Shown: piece after piece, positions 17,971-58,129 of the stretch
Layout of the letters: each line of letters starts with the position of its first letter
Numbering within the stretch: position 1 is the stretch's first letter
Assembly (NCBI RefSeq): GCF_000378145.1
Contig: NZ_KB899288.1
Span: forward strand, 62,001-126,000
DNA from: Saccharibacillus kuerlensis DSM 22868
GTDB lineage: Bacteria; Bacillota; Bacilli; Paenibacillales; Paenibacillaceae
Direction of reading: 5' to 3'
Length of the DNA stretch: 64,000 nt
Program-made: the position numbers and the translations under genes
The notes under the pieces: model-generated
The model's database searches: none
Seen by the model: the letters and a program-made list of their open reading frames with translations, nothing else
Told to the model about the DNA's origin: nothing

Positions 17971-18528
17971 ATGATCTCAGTTAACGATTTTAAAACAGGC
18001 TTGACCGTCGAAGTTGACGGCGACATCTTCACCGTTATCGAATTCCAGCACGTAAAACCGGGTAAAGGTGCGGCATTCGTTCGCTCCAAGCTCAAAAACT
18101 TGCGCAATGGCAACACGGTTGAGCGTACATTCCGTGCCGGCGAAACGATTGGCCGTGCGCAGATCGAAAACCGCGGTGTACAGTATCTGTACGCAAGCGG
18201 CCAGGAACACACGTTTATGGACAACGAGACTTACGATCAGTTCTCGCTGACCAGCGATCAACTGGAATGGGAGCTCAAATTCCTGCGCGAGAACATGAAC
18301 GTACACATCATCAGCTACAAAGGCGAAATCCTTGGTATCAACCTGCCGACGAGCGTTGAGCTGAAAGTCGTTGAGACTGAGCCTGGAATCAAAGGAAACA
18401 CGGCGACAGGCGCATCCAAAAATGCGAAGCTCGAAACGGGCCACAACGTTCAGGTTCCGCTGTTCATTAACGAAGGCGACGTTCTGCTGATCGACACGCG
18501 CGAAGGTAAATACATTTCCCGCGCTTAG
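17971..18528 (+). CDS. efp: Elongation factor P
   Basis: The product is 185 aa, three beta-barrel domains. It binds the ribosome between P and E sites to relieve stalling at polyproline. The loop tip carries K32 (KPGKGAA), the position modified with 5-aminopentanol in Bacillus subtilis. The C-terminal signature ([17 protein letters not shown]) is complete. AAGGAGG precedes the ATG. In spore-forming relatives the spoIIIA operon lies downstream; here a terminator and lysC follow. Confidence 0.97.
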
Positions 18529-18571
18529 TCTGCCATTCAAATTGTCGATAGGCTCTCGGTCTTCGACTCCA

Positions 18572-18609
18572 AAAGCTCTCTGCTCCCTAGCGGCGCAGAG
18601 AGCTTTTTT
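18572..18609 (+). terminator. Terminator of yqhT-efp
   Basis: AAAGCTCTCTGC pairs with GCAGAGAGCTTT across a ten-base loop, then a T-run. Confidence 0.85.
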
Positions 18610-18743
18610 ATGCGGAATGCTGTCGGAAAGTGTAAACAATCTGCTGAAAAAACAATGGAAGCACGGAGTGTTTTCGTATTATACTCATTTAAAGCGATAA
18701 ATACGCCCGGAGCTGCATATATAGAGCGAGGTTCCGGAATAAC

Positions 18744-18785
18744 AATATGTTTTCAGCAGAATTATAATACGCTTGAAAACATATT
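18744..18785 (+). promoter_or_regulatory. 12-bp inverted repeat enclosing a TATAAT, upstream of lysC
   Basis: AATATGTTTTCA (18744-18755) and TGAAAACATATT (18774-18785) are exact complements separated by 18 bases, which contain TATAAT at 18763-18768. The right arm ends seven bases before the lysC ribosome binding site. It could be an operator over a promoter or an RNA hairpin affecting translation. I see no lysine riboswitch core. Confidence 0.7.
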
Positions 18786-18808
18786 CTACGCGGGGGAGTG
18801 AACACGTT

Positions 18809-20062
18809 TTGTCATTATTCGTTATGAAATTCGGTGGCAGTTCCGTCGGCGATACCGAGCGTATGCAGCGGGTTGCCAAGCGCATTGCCGAGAAAAAAGA
18901 AGAAGGACATCGCTGCGTTGTTGTTGTATCAGCTATGGGCGATACGACTGACGATTTGATCGATACGGCCAAGCGTCTAAGCGACAAGCTTCCGGCGCGC
19001 GAAATGGATATGCTGATGACAACCGGAGAGCAAATTTCGATTTCGCTCTTGTCGATCGCTATTCAGGCCATCGGCCACGAAGCCATCTCATTGACCGGTT
19101 GGCAGGCTGGTTTTAGAACGGAACCGACTCACGGGAGTGCCCGGATTACAGATATTCGTCCGGATCGTGTGCTGAAAGCCCTGGATGAAGGCAAGATCGT
19201 TATTGTTGCCGGTTTCCAGGGAATGAGCGAAGATGGGGAGATCACAACGCTCGGACGCGGGGGTTCGGATACGACGGCTGTGGCGCTGGCTGCAGCCATT
19301 CAAGCCGATGCCTGCGAAATTTATACAGATGTGGACGGTATCTATTCAACCGATCCCCGGATCGTCAAATGCGCGCGCAAGCTGCCATCTATTTCTTACG
19401 ACGAAATGTTGGAGCTGGCTCATCTGGGCGCGGCAGTTCTGCATCCGCGCGCTGTAGAGTATGCGAAGCATAACAGTGTTCGTCTGATTGTTCGTTCAAG
19501 CTTTAATTATAATGAAGGAACCGTAGTGGAGGAGGAATCGAGCATGGAACAGGGAGTAGTGGTAAGCGGGATCGCTTATGACAAAAACGTGGCGCGTATC
19601 AGCATCTTGGGCGTATCCGATGTACCGGGCGTGTTGGCCGGAATTTTCGGTGCGCTTGCCCAAGCGCGTGTCGACGTCGATATTATCGTACAGAGCGGAG
19701 CGCAGGATGGAAAAGCCGACTTCTCGTTTACCGTTAACGGTTCCGAAGTTGAACGCGCAATTGAAGTGATCGAAGGTGCACGGGATACGGTAAACTACCG
19801 CGAACTGACTTCGGAATCTGATCTCGTCAAAGTGTCCATAGTCGGCGCGGGTATGGTCAGCCATCCTGGCGTAGCAGCAGAAATGTTCCGCGTAATCGCG
19901 GGACTGGGTGTCAGCATCAAGATGGTCAGCACTTCTGAAATCAAGGTGTCGTGCGTTATTGAAGGCGAGAAAGTCAAAGAGATCATTGCGGCGCTGCATA
20001 CAGCGTATAACCTAGATACCCAGGAACAAGCATTTGTCGGTGGTCCTCAAGATCGCCGCTGA
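18809..20062 (+). CDS. lysC: Aspartate kinase, lysine-sensitive type
   Basis: The product is 417 aa and catalyses the first step from aspartate to lysine, threonine, methionine and diaminopimelate. The kinase motif KFGGSSVG is at 7-14, with MTTGEQIS and the GRGGSDTTA loop further on. Two ACT domains (about 260-410) serve allosteric control. The start is TTG 18809, ten bases after GGGGGAG, giving MSLFVMKFGG as in Bacillus LysC; the upstream ATG 18773 lies inside the dyad. An internal in-frame start (see 19544) probably yields a separate beta subunit. It is flanked by terminators, so monocistronic. Confidence 0.94.
   Translation: MSLFVMKFGGSSVGDTERMQRVAKRIAEKKEEGHRCVVVVSAMGDTTDDLIDTAKRLSDKLPAREMDMLMTTGEQISISLLSIAIQAIGHEAISLTGWQAGFRTEPTHGSARITDIRPDRVLKALDEGKIVIVAGFQGMSEDGEITTLGRGGSDTTAVALAAAIQADACEIYTDVDGIYSTDPRIVKCARKLPSISYDEMLELAHLGAAVLHPRAVEYAKHNSVRLIVRSSFNYNEGTVVEEESSMEQGVVVSGIAYDKNVARISILGVSDVPGVLAGIFGALAQARVDVDIIVQSGAQDGKADFSFTVNGSEVERAIEVIEGARDTVNYRELTSESDLVKVSIVGAGMVSHPGVAAEMFRVIAGLGVSIKMVSTSEIKVSCVIEGEKVKEIIAALHTAYNLDTQEQAFVGGPQDRR
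19544..20062 (+). CDS. Internal in-frame start for an aspartokinase beta subunit
   Basis: ATG 19544 is codon 246 of lysC and has AGGAGG at 19530-19535 with ideal eight-base spacing. Initiation here would give a 172-aa polypeptide of the two ACT domains only. Bacillus subtilis aspartokinase II is known to be alpha2-beta2, with beta made from an internal start in the same frame. The site sits just after the kinase domain, at the equivalent place. Actual use is inferred. Confidence 0.6.
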   Translation: MEQGVVVSGIAYDKNVARISILGVSDVPGVLAGIFGALAQARVDVDIIVQSGAQDGKADFSFTVNGSEVERAIEVIEGARDTVNYRELTSESDLVKVSIVGAGMVSHPGVAAEMFRVIAGLGVSIKMVSTSEIKVSCVIEGEKVKEIIAALHTAYNLDTQEQAFVGGPQDRR

Positions 20063-20110
20063 GCGGCAGCAGAGAGAATCAGCCTCGACCAAATTTGCGA
20101 GTGATAATTA

Positions 20111-20145
20111 GGGCGGCGGCTCCTTCGGGAGACCGCTCTTTTTAT
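20111..20145 (+). terminator. Terminator of lysC
   Basis: GGGCGG and CTCC arms pair with GGAG and CCGCTC around a stable TTCG loop, then TTTTT. Confidence 0.8.
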
Positions 20146-20157
20146 TTTACGTTCTTG

Positions 20158-20166
20158 TGATATAAT
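20158..20166 (+). promoter_or_regulatory. Extended -10 promoter of accBC
   Basis: TGATATAAT is an extended -10 with a perfect TATAAT hexamer about 95 bases before accB. No good -35 is seen, which extended -10 promoters tolerate. Confidence 0.55.
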
Positions 20167-20260
20167 ACATAACGTTAGTTAAACGGCTTGCCGTGCGTTT
20201 TACAAAATGCTGCACGAATATGACCCGCACAAGCCTGAAAATGTTAAGGAGCGTGCTTGA

Positions 20261-20734
20261 ATGTTTAAAATAAGCGAAATTAAAGAACTCATCGAACTGC
20301 TGGATCGTACATCGGTTCAGGAATTGGAACTGGAGGAAGAAGGCGCGCGCGTCGTGATCCGCAAGGGTGGACGCTTTGAAGGAGCGGCCCTGCAGGCTCC
20401 TGTATTGATACAGCAGCCGCAAGCACAAGCTGCCCCTGTACAGAATACGACTGCTGCCGCAGTTTCCGCCGAGCCTTCCGCACCGGACGAGTCTTTACAT
20501 AAAATCGTCTCCCCGATGGTCGGTACGTTCTATGCTTCTCCGTCGCCGGACGCCGATGCTTATGTAAGCGAAGGCAGCCGCGTGAACGAAAAGTCGGTTG
20601 TCTGCATCATTGAAGCAATGAAGCTGATGAACGAGCTTTTAGCTGAAGTTAAAGGTGAAGTCGTTGAAGTGCTGGTCGAGAACGGACAGCTGGTCGAATA
20701 CGGACAGCCGTTGTTCCTGGTCAGAGCGGAATGA
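20261..20734 (+). CDS. accB: Biotin carboxyl carrier protein of acetyl-CoA carboxylase
   Basis: The product is 157 aa and carries biotin for malonyl-CoA synthesis. The C-terminal biotinyl domain has the acceptor Lys at 121 in EAMKLM. An N-terminal helix ([11 protein letters not shown]) and a Gln/Pro/Ala-rich linker (about 45-75) are typical. AAGGAG precedes the ATG. accC follows with overlapping frames. In spore-forming Bacillus, accB directly follows spoIIIAH; no such gene is present. Confidence 0.96.
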
Positions 20735-20766
20735 GTGAACCGGAAGCGGAAGGAGGACGTATCGAT

Positions 20767-22119
20767 TTGGAAACGACAAAATTCAACAAGATTCTGATCG
20801 CCAACCGCGGCGAAATCGCTGTGCGGATTATTCGTGCGTGTCGCGAATTAGGGATCTCTACAGTAGCGGTCTATTCCGAAGCGGATCGCGATTCGCTCCA
20901 TGTTCGTCTGGCTGACGAGGCTTATTGCATCGGGCCGACAGCATCGAAAGACAGCTATTTGAACTTTACGAACCTGATGAGCGTAGCGACGTTGACCGAG
21001 TGCGATGCCGTACACCCGGGTTACGGTTTCTTGGCGGAAAATGCGGACTTTGCCGAAATTTGCGAATCATGCAATATCACGTTCATTGGACCATCTCCGG
21101 ATGCGATCACAAGAATGGGTGACAAATCGGTCGCCAAGGCAACGATGCAGAGTGCAGGGGTACCGGTTATTCCAGGTTCCGACGGTCTGGTTGACGATTT
21201 GGAGCAGGCGGTCGAGATCGCGCGCGGTATCGGCTACCCGGTCATCATCAAAGCAACAGCCGGAGGCGGAGGCAAGGGCATTCGTTTGGCCGAAGATGAA
21301 GACACGCTGCGTCAGCAGATTGTAGCCGCGCAGCAGGAAGCCGAGAAAGCATTCGGTAACGCTGGCGTTTATCTGGAGAAATTCTTGACCGGCATGAAGC
21401 ACGTCGAAATTCAGATTATTGCGGACAAGCATGGCAATGCGGTTCATCTGGGCGAACGCGACTGTTCTGTGCAGCGGCGCCGTCAGAAGTTGGTCGAAGA
21501 AGCTCCCTGCTCGATCATTTCCGAAGAAGTTCGCGACGCAATGGGACAGGCAGCCGTACGTGCTGCTCATGCCGTTAATTACTCCGGCGCAGGTACGCTT
21601 GAGTTCCTGCTTGGACCGGACGGCAATTTCTACTTCATGGAAATGAACACTCGCATCCAGGTTGAGCATCCGGTAACTGAAATGGTTACAGGTGTTGATC
21701 TGATTCAGGAAATGATTCGGGTTGCCGAAGGCAATCCGCTCTCCTTCACCCAAGAAGAAGTGAAGATCAACGGCTGGTCGATCGAGTGCCGTATCAATGC
21801 GGAAGATCCGGATCGCAATTTCATGCCGGCTCCGGGCAAAATCAGTTTCTATCTGCCTCCGGGTGGGCCGGGCGTGCGTGTAGACAGTGCAGCTTATCAA
21901 GGCTACAGCATTCCGCCGTTTTACGACTCGATGATCGCCAAATTGATCGTCTGGGCACCGACGCGGACAGAAGCAATTGCCAAAATGAAGCGCGCGCTGG
22001 CCGAATTCGCTGTCGAGGGAATTCCGACTACAATTCCTTTCCATCAGCGACTGCTGAACCATGAGACGTTTGTACGCGGCGATTTCGACATCAAATTCCT
22101 TGAAGAAAATGAAGTCTGA
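20767..22119 (+). CDS. accC: Biotin carboxylase of acetyl-CoA carboxylase
   Basis: From TTG 20767 the product is 450 aa, the same length as Bacillus AccC. It carboxylates biotin on AccB using ATP and bicarbonate. The ATP-grasp fold shows the glycine-rich loop AGGGGKGIR, and the catalytic [15 protein letters not shown] segment. TTG 20767 has AGGAGG ten bases before it and gives a start close to the conserved [13 protein letters not shown]. An in-frame ATG at 20731 overlaps the accB stop but has a poor ribosome binding site. Confidence 0.96.
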
Positions 22120-30935: not shown

Positions 30936-31385
30936 ATGAAGGGACAACGACACATCAAGATTCGAGAAATCATTTCGAATCGCGATATCGAGACGCAGGA
31001 CGAACTGGTTTCGGCACTGCGCACTGCCGGTTTTCAAGTGACACAGGCTACTGTGTCTCGTGATATTAAGGAGCTTTTATTGATCAAGGTGCCGCTTGAC
31101 GACGGCCGCTATAAATATTCGATGCCAACCGAACAGCGTTACAATCCTGTGCAGAAGCTAAAACGCGCGTTGGTGGACAATTTTGTTCATATCGATCATT
31201 CAAGTAATCTTGTAGTTATGAAGTGTCTGCCGGGTACGGCCAATTCGATTGCCGCACTGCTCGACAATATGGAATGGCCGGAAATTATGGGTACGCTCTC
31301 GGGAGACGACACGATCCTGCTGATCTGCCGCGAACCGGAAAACAGCCAGACCGTGATTGATCAAATTATGGGGTTCATTTCCTAA
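30936..31385 (+). CDS. argR: Arginine repressor (AhrC/ArgR)
   Basis: The product is 149 aa. It is a hexameric arginine-dependent repressor of arginine synthesis and activator of catabolism. The N-terminal winged helix contains [12 protein letters not shown], and the C-terminal arginine-binding domain contains [13 protein letters not shown] and [12 protein letters not shown]. The start at ATG 30936 has GGGGGAG upstream; an in-frame start at 30906 is less likely. recN follows after 19 bases, as in Bacillus. Confidence 0.95.
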
Positions 31386-31404
31386 ACTTTATCGAGGTGA
31401 GTGC

Positions 31405-33135
31405 ATGCTAGTTGCATTGTCCATTCGCAATCTCGCCGTCGTCGAATCCGTCGACGTTCATTTTTTTCATGGATTTCATGTACTGTCCGGGGAAACAGGC
31501 GCCGGCAAGTCGATCATTATCGACGCATTGGGTCTGATCTCGGGCGGGCGAAGTTCTTCCGATTTGATTCGCTATGGGGCGGACAAGGCGGAGATGGAAG
31601 CGCTGTTTGAATTGCAGGACGAGCATCCGGTCTGGAAAACACTGGAGCAGCTCGGCATATCTGCGTCGTCGGAAGAACATCTGGTTATTCGGCGCGAAGT
31701 TAATACGCATGGCAAAAGCACATCCCGGATCAACGGACAGCTTGTCAATTTGACGATGCTGCGCGAAGTAGGCGAACAGCTGATCAATATTCACGGACAG
31801 CATGAACACCAATCCCTGCTGCGGCCGGAAAGCCATCTGGGATTGCTGGATGCCTATGGAGGCAGTACAATCGCTCCGGCCAAGGCTGCTTACCAGCAGG
31901 AGTATTCCGTGCTCGCCAAGCTGGAACGCGAACTTCGCGAGCTTCGGGAGACTAGTCAAAAATCGCTGCAGATGCTCGATATGTATCGTTTCCAGCTTGA
32001 AGAGATTCAGGCTGCCAAGCTGAAGGTGGGCGAAGATGTCGAGCTGGCGGATGAACGCTCCAAGCTGGCTCACAGCGAGAAGCTGATGGAGTCTGTTAGC
32101 GAAGGTTATAATCTGCTCTACGGGGATCGAGGCATTGAAGCAATCGGTTCGGCGATCTCCAGCTTGGAAGATGTGGAGAACTACGATTCGAAAGCCATGC
32201 AGCCGATTTTGGAACAGTTGAGAACTGCCTTTTACCAACTTGAAGATGCGGCATTCCAACTGCGGGATTACCGAGAAAATATCGAGTTTAATCCTGGAAG
32301 GTTGGAAGAGGTCGAGGAACGTCTCAACCTGCTCTCCGGACTGCGCCGCAAGTACGGAGAAAGCGTCGAACAAATCCTTGAGTATTACGACCGTATTCAT
32401 CGGGAGACCGATATGCTGGAGAACAAGGATGAGCGCATGGAAGTCTTGACCGCCAAGCGGGATAAGCAGTTAGAGAAAACGCTGCGTCTGGCAAGGGAAC
32501 TCAGTTCGCTTCGGCGTGATTGTTCACGGGATTTGGCCCGCCAAATCGAGAGTGAACTGAAAGATTTGCAGATGCAGCGAACGTCGATCGAAGTCCGTCT
32601 GGAACCTATCCAGGATGCTCGTGGTTTCGAATTCGAAGGCCGTCGTGTACGTCTGACACGTCAGGGTATCGACAGCGCAGAATTCCTAATTTCGCCCAAT
32701 CCCGGCGAACCGTTGCGTCCGCTCGGCAAAATTGCATCGGGCGGTGAGTTGTCGCGGATTATGCTGGCACTTAAAAGCATTTTCGCCCGTCACGACAAAG
32801 TTCCTGTGCTGATCTTCGACGAAGTCGATACGGGAGTCAGCGGCCGCGCTGCGCAGTCGATTGCCGAGAAGCTGGTGAAGCTCTCCAGAGACTGCCAAGT
32901 CTTTTCGATTACTCACCTTCCGCAGGTTGCCTGTATGGCAGATCATCAGTATTTGATCGAAAAACGGGTAGAAGGCGAACGAACGATGACCCGGGTCGAA
33001 GCATTGAATGATGAAGGGCGTGTGACGGAGCTGGCGCGTATGCTGGGCGGTGTCGAAATTACGGAAAAAACGCTGCATCATGCGCAGGAAATGTTGAAAT
33101 TGGCAGAAGAAAGCAAGAGCGAACGCGCTTCTTAG
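31405..33135 (+). CDS. recN: DNA repair protein RecN
   Basis: The product is 576 aa, an SMC-like ATPase recruited to DNA double-strand breaks. Walker A GETGAGKS is at 29-36. Two long coiled-coil arms (about 150-370) lead to the ABC signature IASGGELSRIMLA and Walker B LIFDEVDTGVSG. The start at ATG 31405 follows GAGGTGAG; the open frame begins earlier inside argR. In Bacillus, spoIVB follows recN; here no spoIVB-like frame exists before spo0A. Confidence 0.96.
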   Translation: MLVALSIRNLAVVESVDVHFFHGFHVLSGETGAGKSIIIDALGLISGGRSSSDLIRYGADKAEMEALFELQDEHPVWKTLEQLGISASSEEHLVIRREVNTHGKSTSRINGQLVNLTMLREVGEQLINIHGQHEHQSLLRPESHLGLLDAYGGSTIAPAKAAYQQEYSVLAKLERELRELRETSQKSLQMLDMYRFQLEEIQAAKLKVGEDVELADERSKLAHSEKLMESVSEGYNLLYGDRGIEAIGSAISSLEDVENYDSKAMQPILEQLRTAFYQLEDAAFQLRDYRENIEFNPGRLEEVEERLNLLSGLRRKYGESVEQILEYYDRIHRETDMLENKDERMEVLTAKRDKQLEKTLRLARELSSLRRDCSRDLARQIESELKDLQMQRTSIEVRLEPIQDARGFEFEGRRVRLTRQGIDSAEFLISPNPGEPLRPLGKIASGGELSRIMLALKSIFARHDKVPVLIFDEVDTGVSGRAAQSIAEKLVKLSRDCQVFSITHLPQVACMADHQYLIEKRVEGERTMTRVEALNDEGRVTELARMLGGVEITEKTLHHAQEMLKLAEESKSERAS

Positions 33136-33147
33136 AAAAAAAGCTTA

Positions 33148-33279
33148 TCCCAAAACCGTATGCAATCCGAAGCCGTGCAGCTGCTTGTTCCGTATAGGAG
33201 CTTTGCTGGGATCACGTCGGATGAACGAATTCTGAAATGTATTCGTTCCATGTGCAGATTAACGGTTTTGGGATTTTTT
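33148..33279 (+). other. Multi-stem element between recN and spo0A
   Basis: An outer perfect 12-bp stem (TCCCAAAACCGT 33148-33159, ACGGTTTTGGGA 33262-33273) is followed by six T residues. Inside are ATCCGA..CGTG (33165-33177) with CACGTCGGAT (33213-33222), capped by CAGC/GCTG, and GAACGAAT/ATTCGTTC (33223-33248). Together they fold as a three-way junction. It may be an elaborate terminator, a small RNA or a small mobile palindromic repeat. It occupies the site of spoIVB; the rest of the 317-base gap has only a promoter. Confidence 0.6.
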
Positions 33280-33281
33280 GT

Positions 33282-33309
33282 TTGAATCTGTTGTATAACC
33301 CGCTATACT
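33282..33309 (+). promoter_or_regulatory. Candidate sigma-A promoter of spo0A
   Basis: TTGAAT (33282-33287), a 16-base spacer, TATACT (33304-33309), about 140 bases before spo0A and just after the structured element. Confidence 0.45.
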
Positions 33310-33452
33310 AATAAAGAGTGAATGTTTGATGGGGGAGCAGGAGTATTTCGAAGCGTGTCGAATTTTATAAGTGAGGGTTGAACAAAAACAGAACGGTTCC
33401 GTGAATTACAGAGGATTCGGCTTCCCGGCCGGATGAGAAGGAGGAACAGGCT

Positions 33453-34259
33453 TTGCCAAACATCGAAGTTATGCTTGCGGACGACAATCGGGATTTCGTC
33501 CACATGCTTCAAGAACACATTTCCACCCAAGAAGATATGACGGTGACCGGAATTGCCTTTAATGGTGAAGAGGTGCTGGGACTGCTACGAGATGCTGAAC
33601 GAGCGCCTGATATTCTGATTTTGGATATCATTATGCCGCATTTGGACGGGCTCGGCGTGCTGGAGAAGCTGCATGAGATGGAATTGAATCCGCGTCCCAA
33701 AGTCATCATGCTGACGGCATTCGGACAGGAAAACATTACACAGCGAGCGGTGGAGCTGGGAGCGGCCTATTACATTTTGAAGCCGTTCGATATCGAAGTG
33801 CTGGTAAGTCGGGTTCGACAGATGCTAAATATTTCGTCTTCGCCGATTACGCCTGCACCAAGCGCGCCTACGCCGAAGCCAAGTATCGAATCACTGTCCA
33901 AAGGCAAAACGCTTGATGCAAGCATCACATCCATCATTAACGAGATCGGTATTCCTGTGCATGTACGTGGCTATAAGTATCTGCGCGAGGCGATTACAAT
34001 GGTGTATCATAACATCGAAATTCTAGGATCAATTACAAAAACGCTGTATCCGTCGATTGCCGAAAAATACGCGACGACTCCGTCCCGTGTGGAACGTGCG
34101 ATCCGCCACGCAATCGAACTGGCCTGGGCTCGCGGTTCCGTGGAGAATATCAGCGATTTGTTCGGATACACCGTCAGCCTCAATAAAGCCAAGCCAACCA
34201 ACAGCGAATTTATCGCGATGATCGCAGACAAGCTGCGGATCGAGCATAAGGTGAGCTGA
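33453..34259 (+). CDS. spo0A: Response regulator Spo0A
   Basis: The product is 268 aa, the master regulator of sporulation entry, biofilm and stationary-phase genes in Bacillales. The receiver domain keeps the acidic pair D10-D11, the phosphorylation site D58 (LILDIIMP), the MLTAFG switch segment and Lys in ILKPFD. A Pro/Ser/Ala-rich linker (about 125-145) leads to the Spo0A DNA-binding domain with the recognition helix [20 protein letters not shown]. The start is TTG 33453 after AGGAGGAAC. Nothing looks degraded, although sporulation genes expected nearby are missing. Confidence 0.96.
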
Positions 34260-34543: not shown

Positions 34544-34595
34544 TACTTTTATGTAAGCGCCATATAAAAAGAGAAGACTTAAAGGAGTGGAAAGT

Positions 34596-35570: not shown

Positions 35571-35654
35571 TATCTGCTTGTCCCATTATGATCGGTTCGC
35601 CGCGCGGTGAAAACACACCGCCGGCGTTCTTACTCGATAGGAGGTTTTTTTACT

Positions 35655-39097: not shown

Positions 39098-39145
39098 CTG
39101 TCAGTCTGTCATTTAACGAAAAACTAGGAAAGGCTAACGGAACTC

Positions 39146-40252: not shown

Positions 40253-40307
40253 ACATAAGTGGGTCGTTTATTGCTATACCCCGCAGAGCCGAAAGGGAGA
40301 GACAAGC

Positions 40308-40556: not shown

Positions 40557-40637
40557 ACGGACCGCCGGTTCGCATTTTCAAGCACAATTCACACTTTATG
40601 AATGAACATCCATTCCGTAAACGAGGAGGAAACAATC

Positions 40638-41279: not shown

Positions 41280-41424
41280 TTGGTTAACTGCGGCTTAAGC
41301 CGGGAAAATGTTCGATCTGCGCAGCTGCGTCTGGCGCTTATCGTTTCAGTAGCGAAACTTTCCGGTTAACGATATCGTATGTGCATAAGGAATGCGATAG
41401 GCCTACGGAAAGGGCGGATGCCAG

Positions 41425-42486: not shown

Positions 42487-42515
42487 GCGTGAAAACGGAT
42501 CAACTATAAAACAGA

Positions 42516-42555
42516 AAAAGCTTCGTACGGTGTAATGCGCCGGCGGAGCTTTTTT
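42516..42555 (+). terminator. Terminator of the GTPase gene
   Basis: AAAAGCTTCG pairs with CGGAGCTTTT across an 18-base loop, with further T residues. Confidence 0.65.
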
Positions 42556-42650
42556 GCTGCCGAGCGGCAGTCTGATATAATAGAAGGAAGGGCGTTTGAC
42601 TGCCGAAAGAGATATAAGCACAGCGAGAGCAGGCAGCAGGGAGGCGCAGT

Positions 42651-43217
42651 ATGTTGACGGAGCGGTTAGAATTGAGAGCTTTTCTGCCAGAAGAGGCGGA
42701 GGAGCTTCTGGAGCTTAGACTTGCAAATCGAGAATTTTTGGCACCTCTGGAGCCCGTTCGCTCGGACAGCTATTTGACACTTGCAGGACAGCGGACAGAA
42801 ATTTTACAAAGTGAAAAAGGAAGAGTCCGCGATCAGGCGTACGTATATGCAATCAGGCTGCGCGAAAACGGGCAGCTGCTCGGACGCGCAGCGCTTACCG
42901 GGATTGCAAGAGGACCGTTTCAGAATGCGAGTTTGGGCTATTTTTTGGACAGGACGCATAATGGGCATGGTTATATGACAGAGGCGGCGCGCGGTATAGT
43001 AGAGCTGGCGTTTACCAAGCACAGACTGCACCGTGTTCAAGCGGGCGTGATGCCCCGGAATGCGGCGTCGCTCCGAGTACTGGAGAAGGCCGGATTTCGG
43101 CGCGAAGGTTTGGCAGAACGATACTTAAAAATTAACGGGGTTTGGGAAGACCATATTTTATTCGGAATCACGATTGAAGACTGGAAAGGAAAGGAGGAAG
43201 AAAATGACGTCAGATAA
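42651..43217 (+). CDS. GNAT acetyltransferase, RimJ/RimL-like
   Basis: The product is 188 aa. The GNAT fold is visible: a start MLTERLELRAF, a beta-bulge segment ASLGYFLDRTHNGHGYMTEA that binds acetyl-CoA, and the family end motif NAASLRVLEKAGFRREG. It resembles ribosomal-protein N-acetyltransferases and YdaF-type enzymes; the substrate cannot be assigned. AGGGAGGCG precedes the ATG. The last 14 bases overlap the next gene, so they are co-transcribed. Confidence 0.9.
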   Translation: MLTERLELRAFLPEEAEELLELRLANREFLAPLEPVRSDSYLTLAGQRTEILQSEKGRVRDQAYVYAIRLRENGQLLGRAALTGIARGPFQNASLGYFLDRTHNGHGYMTEAARGIVELAFTKHRLHRVQAGVMPRNAASLRVLEKAGFRREGLAERYLKINGVWEDHILFGITIEDWKGKEEENDVR

Positions 43218-44124
43218 CAGCAAAAAAGGTAAGGAGCATGAAGCGACAGGAACAAGCGTTGGTGAGCCGGTGGATCGATATATGGCATCTCTCCAAGAAG
43301 CGCCTGAGCATTCCGGTTCTGTCCGTGACGAGACGCTTGGTTATATGCATGAGCTAATCGAAATTGCACGTGACTTTGCGGAACGAGAGGACGACTTCTA
43401 CGCTTGCGCCTTACTGAAGCGGATCGCAAATTCGTTGTCGGCAGCCGTGCTGCTGCGGGAAGGCGGCCTGATTGTAGAAGCTCCGGTACAAATTAGGGTG
43501 GCGTTTGAACATTCGGCGCGTCTGTTCCAGTATCGCGCCGCTCCCGAAACGATCGACACCGATGCGGCTCAGGAAGTTATGGGCAGCAACCTGGGTGTTA
43601 TGAAATACGCCTATGAGCATATTTCGTTTGAATTGACCGATGTGTACGGTTTCCTGAATATTTTCACACATCCCGATCGTGCTTCGCTGGAATGGACAAG
43701 CCGGGTCAATGCGGATTCTGTGGACATGGCGGATATGTTGGCTTTGCATGGGGTTGGCGGTATCTTTCTGATTTTGTCCCGATCTTATCCGGAAGATGAG
43801 CGGCTGAGCGAAGAACGGATGAAGGAACAGGCGGAACGGATTGCGGCACGCATTCTCGGCGTACTGCAGGATTTCGATACGCTTAAGAATACCGGAGACC
43901 CTCATCGAATGCTGGAGCTGTTTCTTAGCGAAAACGGCCGCGTATTCGGCAAGGATAAATACAACGATCATCTGAAAAAATTCATGCTGTTTGCTTCGGA
44001 AAATCCGGAAAACACGATGGAATTGTATCTCAAAAGAGAAATGGAACTTGAAAAAAGAAGACAGCATAGAGCAGCGGCCAAGCAAAGAGAAAAAAACGCC
44101 CGGCTCAGACCAAAAAAGAAATAA
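43204..44124 (+). CDS. Unknown helical protein, translationally coupled to the GNAT gene
   Basis: The product is 306 aa, mostly alpha-helical and soluble. A polar N-terminus precedes helices containing RIANSLSAAVLLREGGLIVEA, and a conserved-looking FLNIFTHPDRASLEW segment. The last 30 residues are a Lys/Arg/Glu-rich tail. The layout loosely recalls DUF5677/HEPN-like proteins, but I cannot assign a family. AAAGGAGG lies before ATG 43204, within the GNAT gene. Confidence 0.75.
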   Translation: MTSDNSKKGKEHEATGTSVGEPVDRYMASLQEAPEHSGSVRDETLGYMHELIEIARDFAEREDDFYACALLKRIANSLSAAVLLREGGLIVEAPVQIRVAFEHSARLFQYRAAPETIDTDAAQEVMGSNLGVMKYAYEHISFELTDVYGFLNIFTHPDRASLEWTSRVNADSVDMADMLALHGVGGIFLILSRSYPEDERLSEERMKEQAERIAARILGVLQDFDTLKNTGDPHRMLELFLSENGRVFGKDKYNDHLKKFMLFASENPENTMELYLKREMELEKRRQHRAAAKQREKNARLRPKKK

Positions 44125-44301
44125 ATGGATATTAAGGAATGTGTCTTTACTGCCGATAGATATAAAGGCGGTTGCTCTCAAGTCTAAAAAAACGTATTCA
44201 AAACCGCTGTTTCCGGATGCCGATTCGGTTTCGAAATTCGGCCAATGGTTAAATATAAAGTGGATACGTCACAATAGACTGAAGTAAGGTGAGGAATCAA
44301 G

Positions 44302-44442
44302 ATGCAAAACAATCAGACCATTCCGCAGTTCTCGGACGTTCTGGAAGAAGTTAATTTTATCCTTTACGGCTCAAAGTCCGGCAAGTCGGATGAAGAGCGT
44401 GGGAACGAACACGAGGAACAAGCGGAAGCCTATGCGCGCTGA
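44302..44442 (+). CDS. Small acidic protein of 46 aa
   Basis: The frame starts MQNNQTIPQFSDVLEEV and ends HEEQAEAYAR. It is acidic, with no membrane segment. TAAGGTGAGG lies eight or so bases before the ATG, a good ribosome binding site, and a very strong terminator follows 54 bases after the stop. These two signals make a real gene more likely than chance. No family is recognised. Confidence 0.55.
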   Translation: MQNNQTIPQFSDVLEEVNFILYGSKSGKSDEERGNEHEEQAEAYAR

Positions 44443-44495
44443 GAAGCGCCATTAACCATTACATTGAGGAATTTTATAGATCCGTACCCAAACGG

Positions 44496-44544
44496 GTCCC
44501 CTTTTTCGAGCAGCTGCAGGCTGTTCGAAAAAGGGGACTTTTTT
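44496..44544 (+). terminator. Very long terminator hairpin
   Basis: A 19-bp stem (44496-44514 with 44520-44538, one G-U pair) closes a five-base TGCAG loop and is followed by TTTTTT. It terminates the rightward small gene; it also sits at the 3' side of the convergent alkC. Confidence 0.9.
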
Positions 44545-44564
44545 ATATGATTGCCCATAGTGAA

Positions 44565-45719
44565 TCAGAGGAGTCTCGAAGGCTGCGGGAGCAGATCGAC
44601 AGTTGCATTACCGGACAGAAGCGAGAGGTGCCCTTCTGCGTATTGGATGCCATTTATAAGAAGCACAATCCGATGAATGCCCGGGTAATGCCGCCGAGTC
44701 GTAAGATCGGCAAACCGATGTCTGCGCGTACCGGACAATCGTTCTCCTCCATCCAACGTCCGGTCGGCCAGCATAAACAATTTGCGTGAAGAGCGTCCCG
44801 ATGCTTTGATAAAATCGATCGCATATTCAAGACGAAGGCGTACAGGAGCGCCAGGTCGTGCTGTTAAACTAAAGTGCAGCTCGATATGTTCTCCGATCGT
44901 GATTGAAGCAGAAGAGAGCTGAAGCGAAGCTTGATCGACCGGAAGAAGAGCATTCCCATTTTCGGCTGTAGCATAACCGAACAAAGCTAAAATTTCGGGA
45001 TCGGCTTGGCGAAGAAGCCCGCGGCAGCCGCGGCGGACAATCCAATCGGTCAGAGGATCAGAGCCGTACCAGCGGTACGCTGTTTCTTTGACCTGTCTCG
45101 GGTTGTCTTTCGAGATATCGTTAAGATTGTTGGCAACGCTTTTGCGGACGTACAGCGACGGATCCCTTTTCAATCGTTCAAGAATGTCCAAGACGGGAGC
45201 CGGATTACGCTTGAACAACGGAAGGGACTGTCCCCAAGGCAGACGCGGTCGGCAGCCCTCACTGGCCAGACGTCTCACATGTTCGTTGTCGCTGGATGTC
45301 CATTTGCGCATGCGAGTCATTGTACGATCAGGCGCATGGATCAGAAAGGCGCGAATAGCGAACTCGGACGACGATTTTGAAGTGAATCGCTCAAGGGCAT
45401 CGAGTGCAAGCTCGACATCGTCTTCAGCTTGTCCGTGTACTTCGACAAAGTCAGGGAAGAAAAGGTAGGGAAAACCGACACAGTGCTCGTCAATCCGATA
45501 CAGGACGTCCAGTGCTTCGGCAAACGATTTGGGGAGCGTGCGGCCCAGCGCTTGGGAGATACGCCGAATGCGGGCTTTCAATTCTAAGCTCTCCCAGTCG
45601 TCTCCAAGCACAAATGTGATAAAAAGGGTGCTGTCAAAGGGCGGATAGGCTGACTTGAGTTTGGCGGTAAAGTCCTGCAAAAAAGCTTCGGTGTATATTG
45701 ATTTTAACGGTTCCGGCAT
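44565..45719 (-). CDS. alkC: DNA alkylation repair glycosylase, AlkC type with Ig-like domain
   Basis: The product is 384 aa. The first 250 residues form HEAT-like repeats of the AlkC/AlkD superfamily (RAFLIHAPDRTMTRMRKW, EGCRPRLPWG, SLYVRKSVANNLNDISKDN). Residues of about 275-375 form an Ig-like beta sandwich, as in AlkC proteins that use it to clamp DNA. AlkC excises 3-methyladenine and 3-methylcytosine without base flipping. TAGGAGG precedes the ATG. It is an isolated leftward gene. Confidence 0.88.
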   Translation of the reverse strand: MPEPLKSIYTEAFLQDFTAKLKSAYPPFDSTLFITFVLGDDWESLELKARIRRISQALGRTLPKSFAEALDVLYRIDEHCVGFPYLFFPDFVEVHGQAEDDVELALDALERFTSKSSSEFAIRAFLIHAPDRTMTRMRKWTSSDNEHVRRLASEGCRPRLPWGQSLPLFKRNPAPVLDILERLKRDPSLYVRKSVANNLNDISKDNPRQVKETAYRWYGSDPLTDWIVRRGCRGLLRQADPEILALFGYATAENGNALLPVDQASLQLSSASITIGEHIELHFSLTARPGAPVRLRLEYAIDFIKASGRSSRKLFMLADRTLDGGERLSGTRRHRFADLTTRRHYPGIHRIVLLINGIQYAEGHLSLLSGNATVDLLPQPSRLL

Positions 45720-53345: not shown

Positions 53346-53420
53346 AAGGTACGCCGTTAATTAAGTACGAAGTTAAGGAATTTCCGTTTTACATTCAGAA
53401 TTGGAGAGGTGGAGAAGGGA

Positions 53421-53984
53421 ATGGAACCAGGCAAGGAAAAGTTGTGGGAGAAAACAGTCGACAGCAAGCCGATTTTTGACGGAAAAATTATCAAAGTGCA
53501 GATCGATACGGTTGAGTTGTCTGATGGAACGACGGCAAGCCGTGAGATTGTCAAGCACCCGGGCGCTGTTGCGGTTGTAGCGTTAAAAGGAGACAAGATG
53601 CTTGTCGTTGAGCAGTTCAGACAGCCTCTTGGCCGCACGGAAATCGAAATTCCGGCAGGCAAGCTGGAGCCGGGTGAAGATCCGCGTGAAGCGGCTGCCC
53701 GTGAACTGGAGGAAGAGACAGGCTATCGGGCTTCCGAGCTGATTCATTTGTCCTCGTTCTATACGTCGCCGGGTTTTGCGGATGAAATCATCCACTTTTA
53801 TGCGGCGGAGGAACTGACGGAAGGCACGCTTCAGCCTGATGAAGACGAATTCCTGGAACTGACGGAAATTACGCTGGACGAAGCGTTTGAGCATATTCGC
53901 GCAGAGCGGATCAGCGACGCCAAGACGTTAATGGCCGTATATGCATGGCAGCTTCGTACACTGACAGGCAAATGGCCGGTATAA
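53421..53984 (+). CDS. nudF: ADP-ribose pyrophosphatase (Nudix)
   Basis: The product is 187 aa and hydrolyses ADP-ribose to AMP and ribose 5-phosphate. The Nudix box runs GKLEPGEDPREAAARELEEE followed by TGY, with all conserved Glu and Gly. VVEQFRQPLGRTEIEIPAG precedes it, as in Bacillus NudF. ATG 53421 is chosen for its spacing from GGTGGAG; GTG 53409 is possible. fur follows in 112 bases, with no spoIIM between. Confidence 0.94.
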   Translation: MEPGKEKLWEKTVDSKPIFDGKIIKVQIDTVELSDGTTASREIVKHPGAVAVVALKGDKMLVVEQFRQPLGRTEIEIPAGKLEPGEDPREAAARELEEETGYRASELIHLSSFYTSPGFADEIIHFYAAEELTEGTLQPDEDEFLELTEITLDEAFEHIRAERISDAKTLMAVYAWQLRTLTGKWPV

Positions 53985-54095
53985 ACCTGACATAAGGGTT
54001 TGACTTCAAAGCCCGGTAACTTCTATAATAGGGAACGTGAGTTTGACAGGAGAACAACCGGCATGAACGGGCAAGCTCCGAGGGGGAGGAGAAGT

Positions 54096-54551
54096 ATGGA
54101 ATCGCGGATCGATAAAATCAAACAGCAGCTGCAGTCCAAGGGATACAAATTGACGCCCCAGCGGGAAGCCACCGTTCGCGTTTTGCTGGAAAACGAAGAA
54201 GACCATCTGAGCGCGGAAGACGTGTTTATGCTGGTCAAGGAAAAGGCGCCGGAGATTGGTTTGGCCACCGTATATCGCACGCTGGAACTGCTTAGCGAAA
54301 TGCATGTGGTCGAAAAGTTGAACTTCGGCGATGGCGTATCGCGCTATGATCTAAGGGGCGAATCGAACAAGCATCATCACCATCATCTGATTTGTGTGCA
54401 GTGCGGTAGTATGGACGAGATTCGTGAAGACTGGCTGCTGCCGCTTGAAGAGCGGTTGGAGAAAGAATATCGTTTTACCGTATTGGATCACAGACTTGAT
54501 TTTCAGGGTATCTGTCACCGCTGCAGAGCGAAAGAAGACGATAACGCGTAA
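54096..54551 (+). CDS. fur: Ferric uptake regulator Fur
   Basis: The product is 151 aa, an iron-dependent repressor. The winged-helix motif IGLATVYRTLELL, the His run followed by LICVQCG, and the second Cys pair CHRC form regulatory and structural metal sites. Its place between nudF and xerD is that of Bacillus fur; PerR is the main alternative family. GGGGAGGAG lies before ATG 54096; the frame is open to 54000. yqzK, normally next, is absent. Confidence 0.9.
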   Translation: MESRIDKIKQQLQSKGYKLTPQREATVRVLLENEEDHLSAEDVFMLVKEKAPEIGLATVYRTLELLSEMHVVEKLNFGDGVSRYDLRGESNKHHHHHLICVQCGSMDEIREDWLLPLEERLEKEYRFTVLDHRLDFQGICHRCRAKEDDNA

Positions 54552-54630: not shown

Positions 54631-54642
54631 GGCGTTTTTTAG

Positions 54643-55748: not shown

Positions 55749-55808
55749 GCTTCACCGCAGTGGTTCGGCAAGACCCAATCAAAATTATATAAACGGAGTG
55801 TGCAATCT

Positions 55809-56639
55809 ATGACAACATCTAAAATGAACGCAGGAACGATTCAGGAAGCGGCGGACTACATTCGTTCGAAAACCGACCTTACACCGGAAATCGGTCTTAT
55901 TCTCGGTTCCGGTCTTGGTATTCTCGCCAATCTGATTGAAGACGCCGTCTCGATCCCTTACGAAGATATCCCGCATTTCCCGGTATCGACTGTAGAAGGA
56001 CATGAAGGCGAGCTGCTGATCGGCACGATCAAAGGCCGTCCGGTCGTCATGATGAAAGGCCGTTTCCATATGTATGAAGGCTATGGCCCGGAAGTAACGG
56101 CTTTCCCGGTTCGCGTTATGAAAAACCTCGGCGTATCCGGTCTGCTCGTGACCAATGCGGCCGGCGGAGTTAACACGTCGTTCAAGCCGGGCGATCTTAT
56201 GCTGCTGTCGGATCACCTTAACCTGACGGGTACAAGCCCGCTGATCGGGCCGAACGACTCGGCGCTCGGCGTACGTTTCCCGGATATGTCTGAAGCGTAC
56301 AGCCGCAGACTGCGTGCCGCAGCTAAGGAAGCGGCGTCGGAGCATGATTTCAACTTCCAAGAAGGCGTGTACGCAGGGCTGCTCGGCCCGACTTACGAGA
56401 CACCGGCCGAAATCCGGATGCTGCGCACGCTCGGAGCGGATGCGGTCGGCATGTCCACCGTTTCGGAAACGATCGTAGCTCGTCATGCTGGTATCGAAGT
56501 GCTGGGGATTTCCTGCATCACGAACATGGCTGCCGGTATTCTCGATCAGCCGCTGTCGCACGATGAAGTGATGGAAACAGCCGATATGGTCAAAGAGAAA
56601 TTCCTTGGTCTCGTGCTGAGCATCATTCCAAAGATGTAA
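55809..56639 (+). CDS. pupG: Purine nucleoside phosphorylase
   Basis: The product is 276 aa and splits purine nucleosides to base and ribose 1-phosphate. Family motifs are LILGSGLG, VEGHEGELLIG, MKGRFHMYEGY, TNAAGGVN and GPTYETPAEIRMLRTLGADAV with VGMSTVSE near the end. ATG 55809 follows ACGGAGTG; GTG 55800 is inside that site. In spore formers dacF-spoIIA follows; here lysA is next. Confidence 0.94.
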   Translation: MTTSKMNAGTIQEAADYIRSKTDLTPEIGLILGSGLGILANLIEDAVSIPYEDIPHFPVSTVEGHEGELLIGTIKGRPVVMMKGRFHMYEGYGPEVTAFPVRVMKNLGVSGLLVTNAAGGVNTSFKPGDLMLLSDHLNLTGTSPLIGPNDSALGVRFPDMSEAYSRRLRAAAKEAASEHDFNFQEGVYAGLLGPTYETPAEIRMLRTLGADAVGMSTVSETIVARHAGIEVLGISCITNMAAGILDQPLSHDEVMETADMVKEKFLGLVLSIIPKM

Positions 56640-56702
56640 GTTTCGTAAGGTTCTGACAAAAACACAAATCAACTGCGCTTTAGTCCATTCAGCGCGGATT
56701 CA

Positions 56703-56748
56703 AGGGTCTGCTATACTGGGAACAAATCCCGGCGCAGGCCCTCTTTTC
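56703..56748 (+). terminator. Terminator or attenuator between pupG and lysA
   Basis: AGGGTCTGC pairs with GCAGGCCCT, with a nested GGGA/TCCC stem, then CTTTTCTT. It ends about 46 bases before lysA, so it may either end pupG or attenuate lysA. Confidence 0.6.
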
Positions 56749-56794
56749 TTTACAGCGAGCGGCCGAGACCCCGGAACACATCGGAGGAATTTAC

Positions 56795-58129
56795 ATGTAT
56801 CTGCATGGAACCAGCAAGGTCAATGCCGCAGGGCATTTGGAAATTGGAGGCTGTGACGTCGTCGAATTGAAGCAGACGTATGGCACTCCGCTGTATATTA
56901 TGGACGAAGAACTGATCCGCCGCCGCGCCCGTGAATACCGTCAGGCATTCGAAGCTTCCGGCCTGACATTCCAAGTCGCTTATGCAAGCAAAGCGTTTAG
57001 CACGCTTGCGATGTGCCGCATCGCTGATGAAGAAGGACTGTCACTGGACGTTGTTTCTGACGGCGAGCTGCACACGGCGCTCAAAGCTGGATTCCCGGCA
57101 CACCGTATTCATTTCCATGGAAATAACAAAACACCGGCTGAAATCGAGATGGCGATGGACGCACAGATCGGATGTTTTGTGGCGGACAACTTCATCGAGC
57201 TGCAGATGCTTCAGGCAATCGCCGCAGAGCAAGGCCGTAAGGTAAGCATCCTGCTGCGCGTGACGCCTGGCGTCGAAGCACACACGCATGAGTATATCTC
57301 CACCGGACAGACAGATTCCAAGTTCGGTTTCGATATCCAGAACGGTACGGCGCTCGAAGCTGTGAAGGCGGCAGCGGAGCTTCCAAACCTGGAGCTGCTG
57401 GGTCTGCATTCGCATATTGGCTCGCAGATTTTCGAGACGGACGGTTTCGAGATGGCGGTCGAGCGTGTAGCCGGATTCGCTCGCAGCGTGAAAGATCAGC
57501 TGGACGTGGAATTTAAAGTTGTCAACTTGGGCGGCGGCTTCGGTATCCGCTACACGGAAGGCGATACGCCGCTTGAAGTGGCCGAGTATGTCAAAGCCAT
57601 TACGGATGCCGTGAAAAAGTCCTTTGCAGACATCGGTTCGCAGCTGCCGCAAATCTGGGTAGAGCCAGGCCGCAGCATTGTGGGCGATGCCGGTACGACG
57701 CTGTACACCGTTGGAACGAGCAAAGATATTCCGGGCGTGCGCAAATACGTCGCCGTAGACGGCGGCATGACCGACAACCCGCGTCCAGCGCTGTACGAAT
57801 CGAAGTACGAAGCAATGCTGGCAAATCGTGCCGGTGATGCCAACGAAGAGACGGTTTCCATCGCAGGCAAATGCTGCGAGAGCGGGGATATGCTGATCTG
57901 GGATCTTGAGCTGCCAAAGCCGAATACCGGCGATCTGTTGGCTGTTGCCTGCACTGGCGCATACAACTACGCGATGGCGAGCAACTACAACCGTATCCGT
58001 CGTCCGGCCGTTGTTTTCGTCAAGGACGGCCTGAGCGATCTTGTTGTCCGCCGCGAAAGCTTGGACGATATCACGGATAACGATGTCATTCCGGCACGTT
58101 TGGCCAAGCAGAGCGTAGAAGCGAAATAA
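56795..58129 (+). CDS. lysA: Diaminopimelate decarboxylase
   Basis: The product is 444 aa. It is the PLP enzyme making lysine from meso-diaminopimelate. The Schiff-base Lys is K66 (YASKAF); the phosphate-binding GGGFG, HSHIGSQI, VEPGRSIVG and the CESGDML catalytic segment are conserved. AGGAGG lies before ATG 56795. It is separated from pupG by only 155 bases. Confidence 0.95.
   Translation: MYLHGTSKVNAAGHLEIGGCDVVELKQTYGTPLYIMDEELIRRRAREYRQAFEASGLTFQVAYASKAFSTLAMCRIADEEGLSLDVVSDGELHTALKAGFPAHRIHFHGNNKTPAEIEMAMDAQIGCFVADNFIELQMLQAIAAEQGRKVSILLRVTPGVEAHTHEYISTGQTDSKFGFDIQNGTALEAVKAAAELPNLELLGLHSHIGSQIFETDGFEMAVERVAGFARSVKDQLDVEFKVVNLGGGFGIRYTEGDTPLEVAEYVKAITDAVKKSFADIGSQLPQIWVEPGRSIVGDAGTTLYTVGTSKDIPGVRKYVAVDGGMTDNPRPALYESKYEAMLANRAGDANEETVSIAGKCCESGDMLIWDLELPKPNTGDLLAVACTGAYNYAMASNYNRIRRPAVVFVKDGLSDLVVRRESLDDITDNDVIPARLAKQSVEAK

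What the first reader, a model, noticed from the sequence alone, without database searches (positions are those of the whole stretch)
17971..58129. Sporulation genes missing at four syntenic positions while spo0A is intact
The backbone follows the Bacillus/Paenibacillus order, yet spoIIIAA-AH, spoIVB, spoIIM and dacF-spoIIAA-AB-sigF-spoVA are all absent where they normally lie. Neighbours are compact and intact, with no pseudogene debris visible. Repeated clean loss at separate points suggests an asporogenous lineage that kept Spo0A for other regulation (biofilm, stationary phase).
Basis: partly seen in the sequence, partly recalled or inferred. Interest (0 to 1): 0.85.

Follow-up and report, generated by a model that had tools for sequence, protein, structure and literature searches.

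The report
Spore-less genus keeping its Spo0A switch
The window comes from Saccharibacillus, a genus described in print as spore-forming, whose genomes lack the tested core genes for making spores but keep the master switch Spo0A and its DNA sites, so it offers a natural test of what that switch does when no spore can follow.

Summary
In the window four junctions are closed (lysC-accB 198 bp, recN-spo0A 317, nudF-fur 15, pnp-lysA 155). Relative G017 has spoIIIAA-AF/AH, spoIVB, spoIIM and dacF-spoIIAA-AB-sigF-spoVAA-AB-gerA there. The window's genome (99.91% complete) has no SpoIVA, SpoIIIAE, SpoIVB, SpoIIM, SpoVAD, SigE, SigF or SigG over cut-off. SpoIVA is absent in 16 of 16 genomes of this genus and present in 378 of 378 other Paenibacillaceae. 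By exact length one is the closed chromosome of S. brassicae ATSA2, whose authors call the genus endospore-forming.

Spo0A is present in 16 of 16 and under purifying selection (median dN/dS about 0.04). A Spo0A box lies before spo0A and abrB in 16 of 16; Spo0B keeps its histidine motif where read. Best reading: ancestral loss of sporulation, with Spo0B, Spo0A and AbrB kept as a transition-state circuit. The kind is known (Bacillus selenitireducens, Exiguobacterium). New here: a genus-wide Paenibacillaceae case, conserved boxes, and conflict with published descriptions.

The parts
17971..18528 (+). efp, elongation factor P; left anchor of the missing spoIIIA site
   Evidence: Pfam EFP domains; same order in relatives
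18773..20062 (+). lysC-type aspartate kinase, ancestral neighbour of efp, not a replacement for spoIIIA
   Evidence: Pfam AA_kinase + ACT; also next to efp in G017, G019, G020
20063..20260 (.). site 1: closed junction where spoIIIAA-AF/AH lie in relatives (198 bp against about 8.5 kb in G017)
20261..22119 (+). accB-accC, right anchor of site 1
   Evidence: Pfam Biotin_lipoyl, Biotin_carb
31357..33135 (+). recN, left anchor of the spoIVB site
   Evidence: tblastn matches in the order argR-recN-spo0A in relatives; the name is from position and was not scanned by HMM
33136..33452 (.). site 2: closed recN-spo0A junction where SpoIVB lies in relatives; contains the spo0A promoter region
33356..33362 (+). 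Spo0A box TGTCGAA 97 bp upstream of spo0A, invariant across clade b
33453..34259 (+). spo0A, 268 aa, receiver plus DNA-binding domain
   Evidence: PF00072 and PF08769; 92% to Saccharibacillus sp. JS10
34587..45719 (.). block (GH43, lacY-type symporter, GGDEF, Cu-amine-oxidase-N, NAD-binding, GTPase, GNAT and others) between spo0A and lpdA
   Evidence: Pfam; spo0A-lpdA only about 0.6 kb in G017
53409..54551 (+). nudF and fur, 15 bp apart: site 3, where TIGR00375 and SpoIIM lie in G017
   Evidence: Pfam NUDIX, FUR
55800..56639 (+). purine nucleoside phosphorylase, left anchor of site 4
   Evidence: Pfam PNP_UDP_1
56640..56794 (.). site 4: closed pnp-lysA junction where pdp-dacF-spoIIAA-AB-sigF-spoVAA-AB-gerA lie in G017
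56795..58129 (+). lysA, right anchor of site 4
   Evidence: Pfam Orn_Arg_deC

Best explanation
The window belongs to Saccharibacillus (the held genus g1, which also takes in Paenibacillus wulumuqiensis). The common ancestor of this genus lost endospore formation, and genes of the forespore and mother-cell programme were deleted cleanly at their old positions. The initiation side was kept. Spo0B, of the membrane-anchored Paenibacillus type with an intact phospho-histidine motif, is taken to pass phosphate to Spo0A. Spo0A is taken still to bind TGTCGAA boxes in its own promoter (autoregulation) and near the abrB promoter (repression of the transition-state regulator AbrB). Spo0A is thus kept as a growth-to-stationary-phase switch acting through AbrB, not as a sporulation switch. 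Shown: gene absence, clean junctions, monophyly, purifying selection, conserved boxes, presence of AbrB and Spo0B. Inferred: phosphate flow, DNA binding, repression, and downstream traits such as biofilm, exoenzymes and competence.
For: Absence: SpoIVA missing in 16 of 16 genus genomes and present in 378 of 378 other Paenibacillaceae genomes (all candidates of the 16 scored); SpoIIIAE missing in 16 of 16; SigF/SigG over cut-off in 0 of 16 against 19 of 19 others; SigE 0 of 16 against 19 of 19; SpoIVB 0 of 16 against 19 of 19; SpoIIM over cut-off 0 of 16 against 19 of 19; SpoVAD 0 of 16 against 19 of 19. Not an assembly gap: G002 is one contig of 5,619,468 bp, the length of the published circular chromosome of S. 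brassicae ATSA2. One branch: genus is a clade, FastTree local support 0.988, nested in Paenibacillus. Retention: Spo0A in 16 of 16, median dN/dS 0.037 and 0.039 in the two clades. Box within 250 bp upstream of spo0A in 16 of 16 genus genomes and 69 of 69 relatives, shuffles 0.015-0.027; box upstream of abrB in 16 of 16, shuffles 0.01-0.055. Alignment control: TGTCGAATTTT is the longest invariant run in the clade b spo0A promoter, and TTCGACAG the only invariant run of 6 or more in clade a. Spo0B between rpmA and obg with HQRHDWMN.
Against: Published descriptions call the genus endospore-forming (PMC9867790, passage) and report terminal endospores in S. soli (PMC13209792); the S. soli genome was not among those searched. 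Spo0F, the sensor kinases, SigH, SASPs, SpoIIE, SpoIID, SpoIIP, Gpr and coat genes were not searched. Spo0A has lost relative conservation: the DNA-binding domain is 99.7% identical among 18 sister-clade relatives but 79.5% between clade b and them, so its specificity may have shifted. A tandem-box pattern gave 20 matches in 14 genus genomes against 15 for the reversed control, but 21 against 6 in 8 outside genomes (my sums), so no wider regulon is shown in the genus. Synonymous sites are near saturation (median pS 0.53 and 0.72), so dN/dS values are rough. The abrB promoter as a whole is conserved (25 and 38 invariant blocks of 7 in clades b and a), so there the box is not singled out.
Confidence: 0.82

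Rival explanations
1. The genes are present but missed because of assembly gaps or extreme divergence.
For: G000 is a 56-contig draft. One other order member, G045, lacks a SpoIIIAE match while keeping SpoIVA and the other core families tested in it, so a single HMM can miss a gene.
Against: Seven family models agree over 16 genomes; G002 is one contig with the length of a published circular chromosome; the junctions are closed with no room for the genes; the models score over cut-off in 19 of 19 outside genomes.
Confidence: 0.02
2. Spo0A is only a leftover that is drifting after loss of sporulation.
For: Relative to recN, Spo0A is less conserved in the genus: identities Spo0A/recN are 90.3/77.4 among sister-clade relatives, 90.2/88.6 within clade a and 94.2/93.9 within clade b. 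Twelve of 134 columns invariant in 69 relatives are fixed to another residue in clade b, one in clade a.
Against: dN/dS near 0.04, present in 16 of 16; boxes before spo0A stay invariant while much of the promoter DNA diverged; AbrB kept with a box upstream.
Confidence: 0.06
3. Spo0A was re-used for a different regulon in this genus, with the clade b DNA-binding domain retuned and clade a adding paralogues, so that AbrB control is a minor part.
For: Clade b DNA-binding domain differs by about 20% from the sister relatives yet is 96.4% identical internally. Four of six clade a genomes carry one or two further Spo0A-type proteins, 57-60% identical to the window's Spo0A, without the upstream box and with median dN/dS 0.12 (7 usable of 10 pairs). 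Tandem boxes are not clearly enriched in the genus but are in outside genomes.
Against: The box sequence upstream of spo0A and abrB is unchanged in both clades.
Confidence: 0.25
4. The organisms do form resistant spores or spore-like cells by a route that does not use SigF, SigE, SigG, SpoIVA and SpoIIIA.
For: Published staining and microscopy in S. soli and the genus description.
Against: The passages and section read name phase contrast and malachite green only, and a search of the text for words beginning with 'heat' gave 0 occurrences. Storage granules or polar inclusions can look alike (recalled).
Confidence: 0.04

Closest known systems
Spo0A-positive asporogenous Bacilli: Bacillus selenitireducens, Exiguobacterium, Macrococcus caseolyticus (Galperin 2012, Table 5, PMC3533761)
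   Same: Spo0A kept; sigE, sigF, sigG, spoIIM, spoIIIA, spoIVA, spoIVB missing
   Different: Here a whole genus nested inside Paenibacillus, described as spore-forming, with Spo0B and AbrB kept and Spo0A boxes conserved; whether the earlier cases keep the boxes was not tested
Spo0A-AbrB transition-state circuit of Bacillus subtilis (recalled)
   Same: AbrB with a Spo0A box near its promoter, Spo0A box in the spo0A promoter, Spo0B present
   Different: No sporulation output; Spo0F, kinases and SigH not tested here
Paenibacillus phosphorelay with membrane-anchored Spo0B-TM (PMC12826061)
   Same: Spo0B of 247 aa with a hydrophobic N-terminus (by eye) and RHDWMN motif beside obg
   Different: That survey reports SigE/F/G/K in 100% of 1,460 Paenibacillus genomes at BLASTP E 0.05; P. 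wulumuqiensis Y24 (G012) has no SigE, SigF or SigG over cut-off here; whether it was in their set was not checked

Membership tests
Spo0A-positive asporogenous Firmicute | spo0A present and intact | tested here: met
   16 of 16 genus genomes
Spo0A-positive asporogenous Firmicute | sporulation sigma factors missing | tested here: met
   no SigF/SigG/SigE over cut-off in 16 of 16; best genus match to the SigE model 75 bits, against 200-248 bits for full-length SigK-type second hits in outside genomes
Spo0A-positive asporogenous Firmicute | spoIIIA, spoIVA, spoIVB, spoIIM missing | tested here: met
   13 of 16 genus genomes have a below-cut-off SpoIIM-like protein, none in G000; such a protein also occurs in 9 of 19 outside genomes
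Spo0A-positive asporogenous Firmicute | SASP, spoIIE, spoIID, spoIIP missing | not tested
Spo0A-positive asporogenous Firmicute | no heat-resistant spores in culture | not testable with these tools
   published claims point the other way
Spo0A-AbrB transition-state circuit | AbrB present | tested here: met
   16 of 16, first 60 aa nearly identical to those of six outside genomes
Spo0A-AbrB transition-state circuit | Spo0A box in abrB and spo0A promoters | tested here: met
   16 of 16 each
Spo0A-AbrB transition-state circuit | Spo0A binds and represses abrB | not testable with these tools
   needs EMSA or reporter
Bacilli phosphorelay | Spo0B with phospho-histidine motif beside obg | tested here: met
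   neighbours read in G000, motif in G000 and G014 only; SPOB_a matches in 16 of 16, a model that also hits kinases
Bacilli phosphorelay | Spo0F and sporulation kinases | not tested
Endospore former | core engulfment and forespore genes | tested here: not met

The most novel reading that the evidence does not exclude
Saccharibacillus makes some resistant, stainable dormant cell by a route independent of the SigF-SigE-SigG-SpoIVA programme, still started by Spo0A; this would reconcile the published endospore descriptions with the missing genes.
Probability: 0.04. Interest if true: 0.95.

Novelty: new member of a known kind. Interest (0 to 1): 0.6.

Why it matters
A genus that taxonomic papers list as endospore-forming lacks the core of the known route to endospores, which matters for its description, for heat-treatment isolation and for its use as a plant inoculant. 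It also gives a natural separation of function: Spo0B, Spo0A and AbrB with their DNA sites but without the sporulation core, in 16 genomes with relatives that keep the core. That makes the question of what Spo0A does besides sporulation directly testable. It also suggests how a permissive BLAST threshold can report sporulation sigma factors in every genome of a group when some lack them.

Tried and rejected
Tandem Spo0A-box pattern in 22 genomes (sums are mine): 20 matches against 15 for the reversed control in 14 genus genomes, 21 against 6 in 8 outside genomes (8 of the 21 from G037); the one G000 match was not followed. Counting the box along the window: 6 and 7 hits on the two strands against about 4 expected per strand, uninformative. 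Aspartate kinase as a replacement of spoIIIA: rejected, ancestral. Horizontal replacement of Spo0A in clade b: disfavoured, since synteny after recN is kept and the best matches outside Saccharibacillus are Paenibacillus-type at 71% or less, with Bacillaceae and Clostridia records at 62% or less. A Spo0A gene tree did not group clades a and b, which I read as a long branch. Longer AbrB-type proteins of G000 as a diverged SpoVT: rejected, 47-49 bits against a cut-off of 235.9, N-terminal domain only, while the G017 protein scores 290.5. Neighbours of three of the five Spo0A paralogues gave few Pfam matches. Literature searches found no report of lost sporulation genes in Saccharibacillus (open-licence PMC papers only; listings, with some papers opened).
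Full report
What the window is. The window is G000:C12:62001-126000 of a 4,699,563-bp draft in 56 contigs, 99.91% complete. Its Spo0A is 92% identical to that of Saccharibacillus sp. JS10; the next best in that listing is 71% (Bacillus sp. FJAT-27264 and Paenibacillus tepidiphilus). G014 is JS10 and G012 is Paenibacillus wulumuqiensis Y24, by equal contig length and shared DNA over the overlap. G002 is one contig of 5,619,468 bp, the length given for the circular chromosome of S. brassicae ATSA2 (PMC9867790, section read); that identity rests on the length. G017 is P. sambharensis. The window's genome resembles S. kuerlensis in size and G+C (4.6 Mb, 50.6% in a table of PMC13209792; window 50.4%), but this is not proven.

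The junctions. Genes were named with Pfam and compared with relatives by tblastn. Between the anchors the window has 198, 317, 15 and 155 bp. In four outside genomes (G017, G018, G019, G020) the recN-spo0A gap is about 1.7 kb and the pnp-lysA gap about 6.7-8.3 kb; the lysC-accB gap is about 8.5-9.4 kb in three of the four (lysC was not found in the G018 stretch). In G017 these hold SpoIIIAA-AF, SpoIVB, SpoIIM, SpoIIAA, SpoIIAB and SigF as NCBIfam equivalogs, plus a DacF-type carboxypeptidase; Pfam adds SpoIIIAH, SpoVAA, SpoVAB and GerA. In the genus the recN-spo0A gap is 320-486 bp in 16 of 16 genomes, and the lysC-accB gap 181-694 bp in 15 of 15 with data (G013 not covered). Sites 3 and 4 were read in three genus genomes only, G000, G002 and G010. 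G010 keeps a TIGR00375 homologue at site 3 (57.6%) and has unrelated genes (TldD/PmbA pair, YdcZ pair, ArsR-type HTH, M14 peptidase, endonuclease) at site 4. Twenty G017 proteins from or beside these intervals gave no other credible hit in the genus stretches; the rest were short matches at E 0.005 or worse.

Beyond the window. Counts are matches at E <= 0.001 or, where stated, over the curated cut-off. SpoIVA: 43 of 59 relatives and 378 of 394 Paenibacillaceae; all 16 negatives in each are this genus. SpoIIIAE: 42 of 59, negatives being the 16 plus G045 of another family. The next searches used 35 genomes, 16 of the genus and 19 outside. SigBFG model: over cut-off in 19 of 35, two genes each, none in the genus; each genus genome has a below-cut-off match at about 205 bits, as several outside genomes also do. 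SigE: over cut-off in 19 of 35, none in the genus; its best there is 75 bits. SpoIVB 19 of 35, SpoVAD 19 of 35, SpoIIM over cut-off 19 of 35, none in the genus. Thirteen of 16 genus genomes have a weak SpoIIM-like protein below cut-off, as do nine outside genomes; it is absent from G000, G002 and G013. In the AbrB/SpoVT search, a protein of SpoVT size and score appears in 19 of 19 outside genomes and in none of the genus rows listed (the list was cut at its weak end). The G017 one is a SpoVT equivalog, and two other AbrB-type proteins of G000 are not.

One branch. A tree of six housekeeping proteins (79 taxa, 2,464 columns, FastTree local supports) gives the genus as one clade (0.988) of two subclades. 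Clade b, with Saccharibacillus sp. JS10 and S. brassicae, has ten genomes including the window; clade a, with P. wulumuqiensis, has six. They are sister to 18 named Paenibacillus/Bacillus records (0.984). Loss in the common ancestor is the simplest reading.

Spo0A is kept and constrained. Spo0A_C is present in 35 of 35. Median dN/dS is 0.037 in clade b (44 of 45 pairs usable) and 0.039 in clade a (9 of 15), near the 0.044 of a sample of 20 relatives (70 of 190); synonymous sites are near saturation, so the values are rough. Yet constraint is weaker than in the sister relatives when judged against recN: Spo0A/recN identity is 90.3/77.4 among those relatives, 90.2/88.6 within clade a and 94.2/93.9 within clade b. 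The DNA-binding domain is 99.7% identical among sister relatives, 96.6% between them and clade a, and 79.5% between them and clade b, while 96.4% within clade b. Twelve of 134 columns invariant in all 69 relatives are fixed to another residue in clade b, one in clade a. So the protein seems to have shifted in the clade b ancestor and then stayed put.

Cis-sites. TGTCGAA or its reverse lies within 250 bp upstream of spo0A in 16 of 16 genus genomes and 69 of 69 relatives; shuffled sequences give 0.015-0.027. None of five extra Spo0A paralogues has it. It lies upstream of abrB in 16 of 16 genus genomes and in the six outside genomes looked at. Because related sequences share DNA anyway, I aligned the promoters. 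In clade b spo0A the longest invariant run is TGTCGAATTTT; in clade a the only invariant run of six or more is TTCGACAG. In abrB of clade b the invariant runs are promoter-like elements followed by TGTCGAA, and in clade a a 36-base run and AGAAATTTGTCGAA; there the whole promoter is conserved, so the box does not stand out. In Bacillus subtilis, Spo0A represses abrB from boxes near its promoter (recalled). A second AbrB-type gene of clade b has a box in four of four genomes sampled; the clade a copy sampled (G001) has none. A tandem form of the box is not clearly enriched in the genus (20 against 15 reversed-control matches in 14 genomes) but is in outside genomes (21 against 6 in 8), which would fit a smaller regulon.

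Upstream of Spo0A. A SPOB_a match is present in 35 of 35, though the model also hits sensor kinases. In G000 it is a 247-aa protein between rpmA and obg with a hydrophobic start (by eye) and the motif HQRHDWMN, also read in G014. This is the layout of the membrane-anchored Spo0B of Paenibacillus (PMC12826061; outline, passages and sections 5, 6, 14 read). Spo0F and kinases were not tested.

Literature. Spo0A-positive bacteria without the sporulation core are known: Bacillus selenitireducens, Exiguobacterium and Macrococcus (PMC3533761, passages and section 15). The same paper counts Paenibacillaceae as 7 of 7 spore-formers (passage). PMC12826061 reports SigE, SigF, SigK and SigG in 100% of 1,460 Paenibacillus genomes at BLASTP E 0.05. 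P. wulumuqiensis Y24 would contradict a literal reading, since related sigma factors could pass that threshold; I could not check whether it was in their set. PMC9867790 calls the genus endospore-forming (passage). PMC13209792 describes terminal round endospores in S. soli by phase contrast and malachite green, and a search of its text for 'heat' gave no occurrence (passages and section 11). No genus genome here has its rounded size of 5.7 Mb, so S. soli was not tested. No paper found reports the loss in this genus.

Verdict. The finding is real, extends to a whole genus, and its interpretation holds. As a kind it is known; as a case it was not met in the papers searched, it contradicts published descriptions, and the conserved Spo0A boxes give a specific, testable reason why Spo0A stayed.

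Noticed in passing
L110, L111, L112, L113, L114 (G001, G004, G010, G012, G010 contig C2): Four of six clade a genomes carry one or two extra Spo0A-type proteins, 57-60% identical to the window's Spo0A, without the upstream box; one lies on a 163-kb contig that may be a plasmid. The G001 one sits near a VTC-domain gene and a response regulator and histidine kinase pair.
   Followed up: partly
window 34587-45719: Block between spo0A and lpdA with GH43, lacY-type symporter, GGDEF and other genes; these two genes are about 0.6 kb apart in G017.
   Followed up: partly
G000:C1:242952-243083 (L206): Second AbrB-type gene of clade b with a Spo0A box upstream in four of four genomes sampled.
   Followed up: partly
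G000:C7:100918-101049 (L208:925-1371): AbrB-type N-terminal domain joined to a C-terminal stretch with a weak sigma-factor region 4-like helix-turn-helix match, 148 aa; rows of similar size and score occur across clade b.
   Followed up: partly
L133:10250-18000 (G010): The pnp-lysA site in clade a genome G010 is filled with unrelated genes (TldD/PmbA pair, YdcZ pair, M14 peptidase, endonuclease), whereas in G000 and G002 of clade b it is closed.
   Followed up: partly
window 60356-60522: FMN riboswitch, an ordinary feature.
   Followed up: no
13 of 16 genus genomes, e.g. G001:C8:67436-68029: Weak SpoIIM-domain protein below the SpoIIM cut-off, also in nine outside genomes; function unknown.
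   Followed up: no
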